Translations under genes and position numbers: made by a program
NCBI GenBank assembly: GCA_900315345.1
Contig: OMYP01000007.1
Location: 186,001-250,000, forward strand
Length of the DNA: 64,000 nucleotides
Source: an uncultured Selenomonadales bacterium
Lineage (GTDB): Bacteria; Bacillota; Negativicutes; Acidaminococcales; Acidaminococcaceae
Direction: 5' to 3'
Notes under the pieces: generated by a model
Seen by the model: the letters and a program-made list of their open reading frames with translations, nothing else
What the model was told of the DNA's origin: nothing
Database searches by the model: none
In this document: positions 4,807 to 21,581 of the stretch, piece by piece
Numbering within the stretch: position 1 is the first letter of the stretch
How the letters are laid out: each line of letters opens with the position of its first letter

Positions 4807-5577
4807 ATGATCATTAAAACTTTTTCTTTAATCGTTTTTTTATCTTTACTGATCGCTCCGGTGTCCATCCCGGCAGCCTGCGCATATAATGCCGGCGATG
4901 TTGCTGCGGTTACCGGCGGCAATAGCTGCCCCGGCGCCGACTTAAGCGGCGCGGATCTGATTGGTGCAGACCTGACGGGGCTGGACCTGACCGGAGCCAA
5001 TCTGCAGGGCGCCAACCTGACCGGGGCCAGGCTGGAACGGGCAATACTTAATAAGGCTGATCTGCAAAATACAAAACTGAAACGGGCCGTGTTTTCTGAA
5101 GCACAGTTAGCTGACGCCTGCCTGCGCAATGTGGAGGCCCCCCATGCTTACTTTGGGCACGCAGTAATGACCAATGCCGATCTGTCTAACGGCAATTTCT
5201 TCCGTTCCGACTTCCGGGCGGCCAACTTATCTGATTCAACCGCTTATGCCGCCAATTTCCAGGAAGCGACATTTGATAAAGCCGATTTAAGCAAAGGGGA
5301 TTTTTCCTTTGCCAATTTTTCCTATTCCTGGCTTTTCCAGGCAGACCTGTCCGACAGCCTTTTTGCGGGCGCCAACCTGTACGAAATAAACGGTACCGGT
5401 CTCAAGGCCCGGCGCACAAACTTTACCAGCGCAAAGCTGGGCAACGCGCGTCTGGCAGAAAGCGATTTCTCGGATGCCGTCTTTGAGAAAGCTATGCTGA
5501 ACAATGCGAATCTTAAAGGCTCTACACTGAACAATACAATCTGGGGAACCGCCTTTAAAGAAAAAGCGATGTTTTAG
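4807..5577 (+). CDS. Exported pentapeptide-repeat protein
   Basis: The start at 4807 gives a 256-residue protein with a clean signal peptide (MIIKTFSLIVFLSLLIAPVS then an AxA-like ACA site) and a GAAAGGA ribosome site. The same frame is open back to 4630, but that stretch is the hairpin repeat and should not be annotated as protein. From about residue 38 to the end the sequence is built of A(D/N)Lxx pentapeptides (for example SGADL, TGANL, NKADL), which form a right-handed quadrilateral beta-helix. It is probably periplasmic. Cytoplasmic members can be gyrase-protecting, but the signal peptide argues against that role. Function is unknown. Confidence 0.85.
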   Translation: MIIKTFSLIVFLSLLIAPVSIPAACAYNAGDVAAVTGGNSCPGADLSGADLIGADLTGLDLTGANLQGANLTGARLERAILNKADLQNTKLKRAVFSEAQLADACLRNVEAPHAYFGHAVMTNADLSNGNFFRSDFRAANLSDSTAYAANFQEATFDKADLSKGDFSFANFSYSWLFQADLSDSLFAGANLYEINGTGLKARRTNFTSAKLGNARLAESDFSDAVFEKAMLNNANLKGSTLNNTIWGTAFKEKAMF

Positions 5578-17640: not shown

Positions 17641-17823
17641 CAGGTTGCCTCCCTTCGGATACTGAAACGTACCTAAATATTTTAAAATTTTGTTGCTTTC
17701 GCAAAATACTTGGGCAAGTAAACGCAAATTAATTTGTCTGAACGTTTACCAGCGCTTTTTTGAATCAGCGCTTCCTATAAAAATATTATACACGAAATCT
17801 TTAAATGACGCATTAGTTTTTAT

Positions 17824-17865
17824 GAAAAAAGAGATAGCCCCACAGCAACTATCTCTTTTTTCCTT
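17824..17865. terminator. Terminator between the amidase and nucleoside hydrolase genes
   Basis: AAAAAAGAGATAG and CTATCTCTTTTTT form a 13-bp stem around 11 bases. It is symmetric and works for the minus-strand amidase gene. Confidence 0.85.
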
Positions 17866-17893
17866 TTTGAAAGTCAAAAAACTTTTTTCGTTT

Positions 17894-18544
17894 TTACGCT
17901 GCCGGGCAGCCTTTCCTCTCTTTTTTCATTTCTTCCTGAAACGCAATGGCCTTTCCCCGGATCAATTCGCCCCCGGGCACCAGCTTGCCATGCTGTTCCG
18001 CGTCTGGCAAAAACCATAAATCCCAGCAGGCGTTTGCATCGCCGCTGCCCGGTCCGTAGCCATCTTTAAAGGCCACTTCCGCATGGGTCATTACCGTGTC
18101 CCTGCCCACCGGCAGCCCCAGCTCTTCACAAACCAGCGCTGCCACTTTTGCCATTTTTTCAATCTGAACACAGGTGGGCGGAGCCGCGCCAAAATTTATT
18201 TTGGCACAATCAGGAGCGACGCCCTGTATGTTTTCGTATACGGCTTTCACTGTCCGGGGATTGAAACCGCAAGGCGTCCAGCAGGCAGAATCCACCCCGC
18301 AACACATGGCTATGGAAAGTCCCCCTTCGTTCCGCAGCCAGGTATGGTCCTTCTTTGCTGCAAGAATTTTGCAATGTACATACACCTGGCCCAGCCGGTC
18401 CACAGAAAGATGGAACCTGTCGTCGGGCTGCCCGTATCGGCCCTTGGTCCAGTGCAGATAAATATTTTTGATCTGCCCCCGGGCCTCCCTTGCCATCTCT
18501 CGTAACTTCTCCTCGGTAATAAATTCGGGTCTTTTCACAATCAT
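17894..18544 (-). CDS. Peptidoglycan amidase (phage-endolysin-like, cytoplasmic)
   Basis: The start at 18544 has AGGAG nine bases upstream; an ATG two codons earlier is too close. It has 216 residues. The segments IYLHWTKG, DRFHLSVDRLGQVYV and THAEVAFKDGYG resemble N-acetylmuramoyl-L-alanine amidases of the amidase_2/PGRP fold, with His residues suited to zinc binding in LHW and THAE. There is no signal peptide, as in phage lysins that need a holin. No other phage genes are adjacent. It could be a domesticated lysin; the specificity is unproven. Confidence 0.72.
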   Translation of the reverse strand: MIVKRPEFITEEKLREMAREARGQIKNIYLHWTKGRYGQPDDRFHLSVDRLGQVYVHCKILAAKKDHTWLRNEGGLSIAMCCGVDSACWTPCGFNPRTVKAVYENIQGVAPDCAKINFGAAPPTCVQIEKMAKVAALVCEELGLPVGRDTVMTHAEVAFKDGYGPGSGDANACWDLWFLPDAEQHGKLVPGGELIRGKAIAFQEEMKKERKGCPAA

Positions 18545-18577
18545 TCGCATCAGCTCCTTTTCTTTTTTGCATTTCTT

Positions 18578-18652
18578 TTAGGAACTCCTGATTAAATGCA
18601 TATGCACGTTTCTCTGCAGACGCGCGCAGACGAATTATCCAGCGGCTCCTCA
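18578..18652. repeat. Short palindromic repeat (family 2), copy with extended loop
   Basis: Arms TAGGAACTCCTGATTAA and TTATCCAGCGGCTCCT enclose a GC-rich loop containing CTGCAGACGCGCGCAGA. It is followed directly by GGCCTT/AAGGCC, a small terminator-like hairpin (18653-18674). The rest of 18653-18846 has no gene that I can support. Confidence 0.6.
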
Positions 18653-18846
18653 GGCCTTCTGTGAAAAAAGGCCTCTACTTATATAATCGTTTGAGGAGCA
18701 AAAAACGCAAAGGGTGATTGTGAACTTTTCGTGAACCATTTTTTTGATAAACGCTTTTTTGCCTGCAGTATCGCTGAAAAACGAATTTTCCGAATGTGTT
18801 TGTGAATTTTTTGTGAAGCAGCGGATGTTTTCAGAGCCGTTTCGCT

Positions 18847-18908
18847 ACAGACATAAAAAAACCGGCACAGATTTGATCCGTACCGGTTACATTGCTGCAA
18901 ATTCTTTG
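18847..18908 (-). repeat. R1 terminator repeat after fic1
   Basis: About 62 bp nearly identical to 20319-20380. On the minus strand AACCGGTACGG...CCGGTT followed by T7 is a good terminator just after the first Fic gene. The homology extends beyond the hairpin on both sides, so it is a duplicated segment and not a chance resemblance. Confidence 0.85.
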
Positions 18909-18920
18909 TTAACGATTCAC

Positions 18921-19814
18921 TTATTCGTGTAATATTTTCAAATACGTATCCAGTCTCGCGTTGATATACCCGGCAAACAGTCCTTCCATAGCAGAAAGGT
19001 CGTGCCTGACGTGGTAGGCGTCAAAGGCATCGTAATAGGCGACCCTGTCGGTGAACTTGATGTCGATGGGCGGATATCCCGCTTTCATCAGTTCCAGGTT
19101 TACAAGCAGCCTGCCTGTCCTGCCGTTGCCATCAATAAAGGGATGAATTCCCTCAAACTCGATATGGAATCGCGCCAGCTTCGTAACGATGTGAGCCTCG
19201 CTTGCGGCGTAGTCGAGAAGAAGCTGTTCCATCTTCGGCCCGATAAGATACGGCTGCACAGGCTCATGATGGGCGCCCATGATGCGGACCGGAATTCTTC
19301 TGTAAACGCCCCGGTCATCCTTTTTGTCAGCAAGCACAAGATAATGGATCTGCTTGATAACGCTTTCCGTCAGCGGCGCGTTTTCCTTCACAAGCTCACG
19401 CACATAATCGAACGCTTCCTTATGACCGACAGCTTCCATATGATCTTTCAGAGGCTTTTGGTCAATAGTCAGTCCACGGAGAACAAGGTCCGTTTCCCGA
19501 AGCGTCAGCGTATTGCCCTCAATGGCATTGGAGTTGTATGTGTATTCAACTGTGAACTCCTCGTTCAGTCGTTCAATCTCACCCTCTGTCAGAGGTCTTC
19601 TGCCGTCCAGCTCAGCTTTTTTGCGTTCAATCTGAGCGAGGATGCTTTCCTTCGACTTGAACCTTCCGTCGGCGGGCTTTTCGGCGTCAATCGGGATCTT
19701 CCAGCCGCGTCCTTCCTGGTACGCGCCGGGGATCTTGCCCTCGGAGCATAATACTCTTATTCTTCTGTCTGAAATGTTCCATTTCGCGGCTGCTTCTTTT
19801 ACTGCCATATACAT
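18921..19814 (-). CDS. Fic-domain protein with N-terminal HTH (fic1)
   Basis: The protein has 297 residues. Residues 1-45 look like an excisionase/MerR-type helix-turn-helix (EAAAKWNISDRRIRVLCSEG). Residues 95-100 (SNAIEG) match the inhibitory (S/T)xxxE(G/N) motif of class II Fic proteins, and residues 224-235 (HPFIDGNGRTGR) are a complete active-site motif. It should be an auto-inhibited AMP transferase or deAMPylase, possibly binding DNA. GGAGG precedes the ATG. Its promoter is covered by an array of CGGAAYAAY repeats (19857-19971), which the HTH might recognise. Target unknown. Confidence 0.88.
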   Translation of the reverse strand: MYMAVKEAAAKWNISDRRIRVLCSEGKIPGAYQEGRGWKIPIDAEKPADGRFKSKESILAQIERKKAELDGRRPLTEGEIERLNEEFTVEYTYNSNAIEGNTLTLRETDLVLRGLTIDQKPLKDHMEAVGHKEAFDYVRELVKENAPLTESVIKQIHYLVLADKKDDRGVYRRIPVRIMGAHHEPVQPYLIGPKMEQLLLDYAASEAHIVTKLARFHIEFEGIHPFIDGNGRTGRLLVNLELMKAGYPPIDIKFTDRVAYYDAFDAYHVRHDLSAMEGLFAGYINARLDTYLKILHE

Positions 19815-19841
19815 AAGCCATCACCTCCAATCTAATGATTC

Positions 19842-19870
19842 ATTATACCACTTTATCGGAATAATACCAA
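19842..19870 (-). promoter_or_regulatory. Promoter of fic1
   Basis: Minus-strand TTGGTA (19865-19870), 17-bp spacer, TATAAT (19842-19847), with the transcription start about 20 bp before the ATG. The first repeat of the upstream array lies between -35 and -10. Confidence 0.75.
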
Positions 19871-19971
19871 GAATATCGGAACAACATAACGCCAAATAAC
19901 GGAATAATAAAGGCGATAGCGGAACAATCCCTATCTCGTTGGAACAATGTAAACGCAATTTGAGGAATAAT
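19857..19971. repeat. Six-site iteron-like array over the fic1 promoter
   Basis: Sites of the form CGGAAYAAY begin at 19857, 19877, 19900, 19920, 19940 and 19963. The steps are 20, 23, 20, 20 and 23 bp, about two helical turns. Sites 5 and 6 have T or A at the first position. The AATAAT and AACAAY forms are mixed. This looks like a multi-site operator. Confidence 0.75.
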
Positions 19972-20111
19972 AGAAAAAGGCGCCCCCTACAACTTTTTTA
20001 TATTGTATCGGAAAAGGTCCAAAAATATAATAAGTTTTTTCACTTATAACGAAAAAACTGTACAAATAAAATCCATTATTTTGGGGGCGACCTTCATATT
20101 TCCGTTTTGAG
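19971..20111. repeat. R2 repeat, fic1 copy, with a 92-bp insertion
   Basis: TAGAAAAAGGC and the segment from ATTATTTTGGGGGCG to CCGTTTTGAG match the uninterrupted 48-bp R2 copy at 21515-21562. In between lies about 92 bp of AT-rich DNA. GGCGCCCCC (19979) and GGGGGCG (20083) face each other at its ends. From 20112 to 20318 I see no gene. Confidence 0.65.
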
Positions 20112-20318
20112 GACGGTAAAAGCAACACCTAATATAAAGTTACGCGCAACAAGACCTCGCTGCCTGAAACAGGTTACTTGAAACTGTATCTAACTTCGGT
20201 ATAAATTTTCGCATTATTGGCGAACAGTTCAAAAATTGGCAGTTTTTTTCACGAAAAGAAGTATTTTTAACCACTATATATAGAGTTAAAAGTGCATTCC
20301 ACAACTATATGTTCTCAT

Positions 20319-20380
20319 ACAGACATAAAAAAAAACGGCACAGATTTGATCCGTACCGGTTCGCATTGCTACAATTATTC
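20319..20380 (-). repeat. R1 terminator repeat after fic2
   Basis: Second copy of the segment at 18847-18908. The minus-strand hairpin ACGG...CCGT is followed by T9, placing a terminator 60 bp after the fic2 stop. Confidence 0.85.
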
Positions 20381-20439
20381 ATTGCTACTATTTCATTATG
20401 TAATTGTTCACGCAGTCCTTCCTTCTTCGCGCAACCTTT

Positions 20440-21441
20440 TTACTGTTTCACATATCTTTGGTTCCTGCTGTTCGGTTTATCCGGTAAAGTCATACAAACC
20501 AGTCCTAGCGACATCGCGGGATTCAGGTAGTTCTTCCGAAAGGTTTCCCTGGATCGTAAGCCCAAGGCTTTCATAATTTCTCTGGCTGTATAAGGTACGC
20601 CAAACTCCATACAGTCAAGGAGACGTTTCACATATTGGGAGAGCGCAGCATCCAATTGCTGTACTTGCGCAATAACTTCATCCAACACCTGATTTATCAT
20701 CTCCAGCATAAATTCAATAAACACGTTAGAATTCCCATTCACATGGCACTGGGCAATCGCGTCGTAATACGCCTGCTGAAATCTTTCAATCTGACTCTCC
20801 AGCGGAATATACGCAAAAACGTTTCTCCATTTATATAAAATAACCGTATGCCAAAGCCGCGCCATCCTTCCATTGCCATCCGCAAAGGGGTGAATGAAAA
20901 CAAATTCATAGTGGAACACGGCCGCCATGATAAGAGGATGAACCTTTCCTTTATTTTGTTTTACCCACAGAAGCAAATCATCGACCAGCCCGCTTATCCT
21001 GTCAGGAGGAGGGCAGACAAATATACACTTATCACCGTCAAAGACACCCTCGTCGCCCTTACGGAAGCAACCGGATTCTTCTACCGTCCGGTACGTCATG
21101 ATTCCATGTACCGATTTCAGATCATCGATGCTTGTAGGGTCAATCGTTTCGATAAGCTCATATGCCTTGAAAGCATTTTTTACTTCCTGTATTTCTTTTT
21201 GGTCGCCAAAGACAATGCGCCCGTCAATCACATCCCTTACTTCCCGCAAGGAAAGAGAGTTCGCCTCAATTTTCAGCGACGAATGAATGGAACGGATCCG
21301 ATTGTTTTTTCTGAGATGCGGCTTTGATTCCAAATCGTTACGGAAAGCGACTTTGCCAATTTTTTCAGAAATTGCGGAAACGAGGGCAAGCATCCGGTCT
21401 GAAATTGTATAAGGTGGAATGTAATGCTCCAAGTTTGTCAC
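20440..21441 (-). CDS. Fic-domain protein with C-terminal winged-helix-like tail (fic2)
   Basis: The protein has 333 residues. The active-site motif HPFADGNGRMAR is at residues 184-195. An inhibitory-helix-like SLKIEANSLS is near residues 55-64, with Ala after the Glu where Gly or Asn is usual. The C-terminal 60 residues (YTAREIMKALGLRSRETFRKN) look like a winged helix-turn-helix. It resembles Fic/DUF4172-type proteins. The start is probably GTG at 21441, or TTG three codons later, which has GAGGTG at better spacing. Sequence similarity to fic1 outside the core is low, so the two are different Fic subfamilies in parallel settings. Confidence 0.86.
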   Translation of the reverse strand: MTNLEHYIPPYTISDRMLALVSAISEKIGKVAFRNDLESKPHLRKNNRIRSIHSSLKIEANSLSLREVRDVIDGRIVFGDQKEIQEVKNAFKAYELIETIDPTSIDDLKSVHGIMTYRTVEESGCFRKGDEGVFDGDKCIFVCPPPDRISGLVDDLLLWVKQNKGKVHPLIMAAVFHYEFVFIHPFADGNGRMARLWHTVILYKWRNVFAYIPLESQIERFQQAYYDAIAQCHVNGNSNVFIEFMLEMINQVLDEVIAQVQQLDAALSQYVKRLLDCMEFGVPYTAREIMKALGLRSRETFRKNYLNPAMSLGLVCMTLPDKPNSRNQRYVKQ

Positions 21442-21444
21442 CTC

Positions 21445-21483
21445 ATCTTGCTTATTATCTTACTTGTTATCTTGCTTAATTAT
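21445..21483 (-). promoter_or_regulatory. fic2 promoter with three tandem 12-bp repeats in the leader
   Basis: On the plus strand the unit ATCTTRCTTRWT occurs three times head to tail at 21445, 21457 and 21469. Minus-strand TATAAT (21478-21483) has an extended -10 TG. The repeats therefore occupy the transcription start and 5' leader down to the ribosome site. Confidence 0.65.
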
Positions 21484-21514
21484 AGCACAAACGCAAGCAG
21501 AGTACTATGGAGAT

Positions 21515-21562
21515 TTAGAAAAAGGCATTATTCTTTGGGCGACTTTCGTATTTCCGTTTTGA
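21515..21562. repeat. R2 repeat, fic2 copy
   Basis: The uninterrupted 48-bp counterpart of 19971-20111. It ends 20 bp from the rlmH stop codon and marks the right border of the Fic region. Confidence 0.7.
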
Positions 21563-21581
21563 GCGAAAATTCCTATTTTCT

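What the first reader, a model, noticed from the sequence alone, without database searches (positions are those of the whole stretch)
19842..19971. Six-site iteron-like array covering the promoter of an HTH-Fic gene
CGGAAYAAY-type sites start at 19857, 19877, 19900, 19920, 19940 and 19963, with steps of 20, 23, 20, 20 and 23 bp. One site lies between -35 and -10 and the rest extend upstream. The regular spacing near two helical turns suggests cooperative binding on one DNA face. The Fic protein encoded just downstream has an N-terminal helix-turn-helix, so it could bind its own operator. A Fic enzyme that is also its own multi-site autoregulator would be unusual.
Basis: partly seen in the sequence, partly recalled or inferred. 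Interest (0 to 1): 0.74.

Follow-up and report, generated by a model that had tools for sequence, protein, structure and literature searches.

The report
Multi-site self-operator of an HTH-Fic enzyme
Six evenly spaced copies of a short DNA word sit on the promoter of a mobile gene whose protein fuses a DNA-reading head to a protein-modifying (AMPylating) Fic enzyme; comparison of more than a hundred relatives shows that this is very probably the enzyme's own on/off switch, in a many-site layout not described for such enzymes in the papers searched.

Summary
Six head-to-tail sites (TTRTTCC on the gene's strand) lie upstream of the minus-strand HTH-Fic gene 18921-19814 with steps 20, 23, 20, 20, 23. 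One fills the 17-bp spacer between -35 and -10. In 300 simulated windows no 115-bp stretch held more than 2. The array is conserved: 74 of 97 relatives (62-94% identical; Bacillota, phages, plasmids, mycoplasma) have exactly the 23-20 triple, while sequence upstream of it is free to vary. Distant HTH-Fic relatives keep the half-site but rearrange it: a divergent pair 38-39 bp apart, one promoter palindrome, or two palindromes flanking the promoter. Fic relatives without the HTH lack it (5/47 against 27/40 at p<=0.05), as do three proteins with a broken recognition helix. Best reading: the N-terminal lambda-Xis/MerR-like HTH binds its own promoter as a multi-site autorepressor. Binding, repression and cooperativity are inferred, not shown. 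A self-repressing Fic is not unprecedented: CccR of Yersinia does it with a C-terminal HTH and a palindrome. New here are the N-terminal HTH family, the direct-repeat array, and one half-site reused in four geometries.

The parts
18921..19814 (-). HTH-Fic gene (297 aa): N-terminal winged HTH (residues 1-42), linker, class II Fic domain with inhibitory SNAIEG (95-100) and active-site HPFIDGNGRTGR (224-235)
19689..19814 (-). codons of the N-terminal winged HTH (H5-12, H16-25, E32-34, E37-41); W12, S15, R17, R18 and R20 invariant in the 26-sequence alignment
19842..19847 (-). -10 box TATAAT
   Evidence: sequence; same offset in 72 of 74 relatives
19865..19870 (-). -35 box TTGGTA; spacer to the -10 is 17 bp
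   Evidence: sequence; consensus TTGaTA conserved
19820..19828 (-). ribosome binding site GGAGGTGAT
   Evidence: sequence
19854..19866 (-). operator site 1 (TATTATTCCGATA), inside the -35/-10 spacer
19874..19886 (-). operator site 2 (TGTTGTTCCGATA), just upstream of -35; step 20
19897..19909 (-). operator site 3 (TATTATTCCGTTA); step 23; last site of the conserved core triple
19917..19929 (-). operator site 4 (GATTGTTCCGCTA); step 20
19937..19949 (-). operator site 5 (CATTGTTCCAACG), weaker; step 20
   Evidence: with one mismatch
19960..19972 (-). operator site 6 (TATTATTCCTCAA), weaker; step 23
   Evidence: with one mismatch

Best explanation
The array is the self-operator of the HTH-Fic protein. 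The N-terminal lambda-Xis/MerR-like winged HTH reads one half-site, RTTRTTCCGATA. Several molecules bind head to tail along the three to six sites. Occupancy of site 1, which fills the 17-bp spacer between -35 and -10, and of site 2, which abuts -35, keeps RNA polymerase off, so rising HTH-Fic shuts down its own transcription; the extra sites make the response steeper or act as a reservoir. Shown by comparison: a conserved half-site, fixed core geometry, co-transfer with the gene, and presence that follows an intact HTH. Inferred: physical binding, repression rather than activation, and cooperativity.
For: (1) 74 of 97 HTH-Fic promoters at 62% identity or more hold sites spaced exactly 23 then 20, with the -10 at +17 in 72 of 74; in 57 non-redundant promoters information is high at the three sites, -35 and -10 and close to zero upstream of site 3. 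(2) The gene and array move together: 13 genus siblings lack the gene, while relatives with arrays occur in Clostridia, Erysipelotrichales, Mycoplasmopsis, a Leptotrichia plasmid and Streptococcus phage Javan422. (3) In 24 gene-bearing genomes the array pattern appears at most at one place per genome, with zero control hits; in the window's genome only at this gene. (4) Distant HTH-Fics (33-60% identity) keep the half-site in other geometries: 27 of 40 score p<=0.05 against 5 of 47 HTH-less Fic relatives; median p 0.01 against 0.51. (5) L172, L173 and L199, whose recognition helix has lost the SDRRxR pattern, have no site. (6) The HTH model's best structural matches are DNA-bound lambda Xis (Z 6.4) and BldC (Z 5.9), proteins that bind direct repeats. 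(7) The spacer is 17 bp, the normal length, which suits occlusion and gives no sign of MerR-type untwisting. (8) In the relatives examined no partner gene recurs beside it, so the protein is the natural candidate.
Against: No binding or expression data. The HTH/motif link rests on few independent gains or losses: on a Fic-domain tree only 4 independent pairs, concordant in 0-2 and never discordant, too few for significance. Some HTH-positive relatives (L126, L186, L092) show little or no site. The HTH scores below the Pfam and NCBIfam cut-offs. Fic enzymes often form symmetric dimers, which fit palindromes more easily than direct repeats; a flexible linker has to be assumed.
Confidence: 0.84

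Rival explanations
1. HTH-Fic binds the array but as an activator (MerR-like), or as a repressor at low and an activator at high occupancy, with upstream sites 2-6 recruiting polymerase.
For: Sites extend upstream to about -110, where activators bind; MerR proteins also sit in the -35/-10 spacer, and the HTH fold matches them.
Against: The spacer is 17 bp and the -10 is often a perfect TATAAT (43 of 74), so no distortion is needed; site 1 covers the core promoter; relatives with a single promoter palindrome or two palindromes flanking it look like classic repressors.
Confidence: 0.08
2. A host or phage-encoded regulator, not the Fic protein, binds the array.
For: Binding is not shown; the motif could be a common regulator's site.
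Against: The array is found only at this gene in gene-bearing genomes of many orders, follows the gene on phages and plasmids, and is missing from HTH-less Fic relatives.
Confidence: 0.06
3. The repeats are replication or partition iterons, or a recombination (excisionase) site of the mobile unit, and overlap the promoter by accident.
For: Iteron-like spacing; an Xis-like HTH; the gene is mobile.
Against: The core geometry is locked to -35 and -10 in the conserved promoters; no rep, par or integrase gene lies beside it in the window; the array is kept at chromosomal, phage and plasmid locations alike.
Confidence: 0.02

Closest known systems
CccR, Fic-HTH autorepressor of Yersinia pseudotuberculosis (PMC9755527)
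   Same: Class II Fic with a DNA-binding domain; represses its own gene through sites near -35 and -10.
   Different: HTH is C-terminal; operator is one inverted repeat (AGATAATCAT-N26-ATGATAATCT) bound by a dimer. Here the HTH is N-terminal and Xis/MerR-like, and the operator is three to six direct repeats 20/23 bp apart.
CbFic2 of Coxiella burnetii (PMC10628234)
   Same: Class II Fic with an HTH; DNA binding changes oligomeric state and switches AMPylation to deAMPylation.
   Different: C-terminal winged HTH; random DNA used, no operator known; reported to act on host histone.
BldC (MerR-like, Streptomyces; PMC5859096) and lambda Xis
   Same: Small winged HTH of the same fold (Z 5.9 and 6.4) binding DNA direct repeats; BldC head to tail in variable number.
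   Different: BldC repeats are 9 bp, one helical turn apart, and its oligomer is made by the wHTH alone; here sites are about two turns apart and the HTH carries a 240-residue Fic domain.
Phd/Doc toxin-antitoxin operon (Fido superfamily)
   Same: A Fido enzyme whose transcription is autoregulated at its own operator.
   Different: Two genes, with the antitoxin as repressor; here one polypeptide and no partner gene seen in the sampled loci.
SoFic-type single-gene phage defence (PADLOC SoFic, PDC-S04)
   Same: Profile matches (E 1e-28 and 9e-40); solo mobile Fic genes.
   Different: No defence activity tested; domain order differs (SoFic has a C-terminal winged HTH).

Membership tests
Fic/Fido AMP-transferase family | Pfam Fic domain above curated cut-off | tested here: met
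   PF02661 73.6 bits against cut-off 24
Fic/Fido AMP-transferase family | complete active-site motif HxFx(D/E)GNGRxxR | tested here: met
   HPFIDGNGRTGR, invariant in 26 relatives
Class II Fic | inhibitory (S/T)xxxE(G/N) N-terminal to the Fic motif | tested here: met
   SNAIEG at 95-100; E99 and G100 invariant, S/T at 95
Fic/Fido AMP-transferase family | AMP transfer to a target protein | not testable with these tools
   needs enzyme assay
Excisionase/MerR-like winged HTH (HTH_17) | profile score above curated cut-off | tested here: not met
   HTH_17 25.5 bits against 27; TIGR01764 20.9 against 28.8
Excisionase/MerR-like winged HTH (HTH_17) | helix-turn-helix plus beta wing fold | tested here: inconclusive
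   AlphaFold model pLDDT about 94 over residues 1-40; best matches lambda Xis Z 6.4 and BldC Z 5.9, below the level that excludes a common arrangement
CccR-type Fic autorepressor | conserved operator on its own promoter | tested here: met
   (by conservation; binding not shown)
CccR-type Fic autorepressor | C-terminal HTH | tested here: not met
   HTH is residues 1-42
CccR-type Fic autorepressor | inverted-repeat operator | tested here: not met
   direct repeats here; inverted forms occur only in more distant relatives
CccR-type Fic autorepressor | binding and repression in vitro and in vivo | not testable with these tools
   needs EMSA and reporter assays
BldC-type head-to-tail regulator | direct repeats in variable number | tested here: met
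   3 to 6 sites by locus
BldC-type head-to-tail regulator | 9-bp repeats one helical turn apart | tested here: not met
   steps 20 and 23 bp
Type II toxin-antitoxin module | conserved partner gene | tested here: not met
   nearest flanking ORFs of 21 relatives, read by eye, show no recurring partner
Single-gene Fic phage defence (SoFic) | protection against phage | not testable with these tools
   profile similarity only

The most novel reading that the evidence does not exclude
The operator is also the enzyme's switch: multi-site assembly on the array brings Fic domains together and turns AMPylation off (or into deAMPylation, as DNA does for CbFic2), so one DNA element measures enzyme copy number and silences both the gene and the protein. 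Across the family one half-site type has been rewired between palindromes, divergent pairs and tandem arrays while the enzyme stayed the same.
Probability: 0.2. Interest if true: 0.78.

Novelty: new variant of a known kind. Interest (0 to 1): 0.58.

Why it matters
HTH-Fic fusions have been known since at least 2009, but the papers searched report a mapped self-operator for only one, CccR. Here a widespread, mobile single-gene Fic family comes with a base-resolved operator, so its DNA ligand is known before its protein target. That makes two questions testable: does operator DNA control Fic activity, and how can one HTH-enzyme family use direct repeats, distant inverted sites and palindromes built from the same half-site. 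It may also be a compact way to keep a potentially toxic enzyme silent without an antitoxin gene.

Tried and rejected
Iteron/replication origin: rejected, no rep gene in the window neighbourhood and sites locked to promoter elements. RNA-level element: rejected, the sites lie upstream of the transcription start predicted from the -10. Wider regulon in the window's genome: searches for further arrays, promoter-placed sites and single sites gave little beyond control counts; the one other perfect 13-mer (C30:23765) is not in front of an ORF of 60 aa or more within 300 bp. Strict 10.5-bp phasing of all extra sites in relatives: not supported. Phylogenetically independent test of HTH against motif: run, underpowered. 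L127 scored as an HTH-less Fic with sites, but it is a viral contig end where a remnant array stands before a truncated fic gene. L209 and L224 are mis-started or false HTH rows. The architecture labels used on the tree were assigned by eye.

Full report
WHAT IS THERE. The minus-strand gene 18921-19814 encodes a 297-residue protein with a helix-turn-helix head (residues 1-42; HTH_17 and 'excise' profiles just under their cut-offs) and a class II Fic domain with the full active-site motif HPFIDGNGRTGR and the inhibitory motif SNAIEG. Upstream, on the gene's strand, are TTGGTA, 17 bp, TATAAT, then GGAGGTGAT and the start codon. Six copies of TTRTTCC in one orientation lie at steps of 20, 23, 20, 20 and 23 bp; the first fills the -35/-10 spacer and the second abuts the -35. 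Sites 1-4 match CGGAAYAAY on the plus strand exactly; sites 5 and 6 differ at the first base. In 300 Markov windows of the same composition no 115-bp stretch held more than two such words on one strand.

CONSERVATION. Thirteen genomes of the window's own genus lack the gene, so it has moved horizontally. Of 81 promoters, 69 have the last three sites spaced exactly 23 and 20. With phage, plasmid, mycoplasma and further genomes added, 74 of 97 promoters of proteins at least 62% identical have the exact triple, and in 72 of these the -10 is at the same offset. An alignment of 57 non-redundant promoters shows information of 1-2 bits at the three sites, the -35 and the -10, and near zero upstream of site 3. 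Most loci have three sites and some up to six; the extra sites follow a period near 21 bp but not a strict helical phase. Locus L008 has exactly the window's six positions.

SAME HALF-SITE, OTHER GEOMETRIES. Relatives at 55-60% identity, and a second group near 46%, have one site in the promoter spacer and an inverted copy 38-39 bp upstream (L091, L093, L094, L124, L170; L106, L107, L109, L112). A third set has a palindrome or inverted pair at the promoter (L110 TACCGTTATCGGAATAAC...CATTATTCCGATAACGGTA; L180 ATATTATACCGCAAACGGTATAATAT; L185). A fourth (L175, L177, L178, L182) has TTATGCCGATAACGGCATAA-type palindromes both upstream of -35 and downstream of -10. A matrix built only from the direct-repeat clade finds the half-site at p<=0.05 in 27 of 40 other HTH-positive rows and in 5 of 47 Fic relatives without the HTH, median p 0.01 against 0.51. 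Three HTH-positive proteins whose recognition helix has lost the SDRRxR pattern (L172, L173, L199) have no site; L172 and L173 branch next to the direct-repeat clade on a tree of the Fic domain alone. On that tree the direct-repeat operator is one clade. Changes of HTH presence are few, so the formal independent-pairs test has only four pairs and cannot reach significance.

MECHANISM. The predicted HTH fold (pLDDT about 94 over residues 1-40) best matches DNA-bound lambda Xis (Z 6.4) and BldC (Z 5.9), proteins that bind direct repeats (BldC). Most likely several HTH-Fic molecules bind head to tail along the array and block polymerase at site 1, giving negative feedback. Conservation, co-transfer and dependence on an intact HTH are shown by comparison; binding, sign and cooperativity are inferred. 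The 17-bp spacer with a good -10 argues for plain occlusion rather than MerR-type activation. Distant relatives use palindromes and inverted pairs, so the HTH is probably flexibly tethered to the Fic body; the more distant phage-borne proteins L124-L126 have about seven more residues in the linker, and two of these have the divergent-pair layout. Nearest flanking ORFs of 21 relatives show no recurring partner gene, which fits a one-gene, self-contained circuit.

WHAT IS KNOWN. Kinch and colleagues suggested in 2009 that HTH domains fused to Fic may regulate fic expression (PMC2686095). CccR of Yersinia pseudotuberculosis represses its own gene through a C-terminal HTH and an inverted repeat with a 26-bp spacer (PMC9755527). 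CbFic2 of Coxiella switches from AMPylation to deAMPylation on DNA binding (PMC10628234). No paper found in the held library describes an N-terminal Xis-like HTH-Fic with a direct-repeat operator; the library is not complete. I therefore file it as a new variant of a known kind.

WHY NOT HIGHER OR LOWER. Self-regulation by a Fic-HTH protein is not new, and no experiment is in hand. But the operator is defined to the base across a wide mobile family, and the switch between four operator geometries within one enzyme family is unexpected and testable.

Noticed in passing
window 21445-21480, minus strand, just upstream of the second fic gene (20440-21441): Directly after a TATAAT-like box the second Fic gene (SoFic-like, with PF21247 C-terminal domain) has three tandem 12-bp words AAGYAAGATRA (two found, the middle one read by eye); it may have its own, different operator over its transcription start.
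   Followed up: partly
window 18855-18888 and 20328-20361; 20068-20111 and 21520-21563: Both fic genes, only about 31% identical, are followed by 97% identical terminator-like hairpins found nowhere else in the genome and preceded by an 84% identical 44-nt sequence, as if two cassettes of about 1.45 kb sat in tandem.
   Followed up: partly
window about 17661-21567: In sibling genomes rlmH and the nucleoside-hydrolase-like gene are only about 125-430 bp apart where both align; here 3.9 kb with an unassigned 218-aa gene and both fic genes lies between them, an insertion hotspot behind rlmH.
   Followed up: partly
L127, around 4950-5060: Viral contig end with a remnant array directly before a fic gene that has lost its first 160 or so codons.
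   Followed up: no
L172 and L173: HTH-Fics in TGA-reading (mycoplasma-like) genomes whose recognition helix has decayed and whose promoters have no sites.
   Followed up: partly
L130 5001-5894: In Streptococcus phage Javan422 the HTH-Fic with its array sits between the terminase large subunit and portal genes, like a moron.
   Followed up: no
L052, L128 and L061 flanks: HTH-Fic next to type I restriction-modification genes, and beside reverse-transcriptase-like and integrase-like ORFs (read by eye): defence-island-like settings.
   Followed up: no
L038, ORF about 875 bp upstream of the match: A second, divergent HTH-Fic gene stands upstream of the first; its relative L225 has TTGCCGATATCGGCAA-type sites at its promoter.
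   Followed up: no
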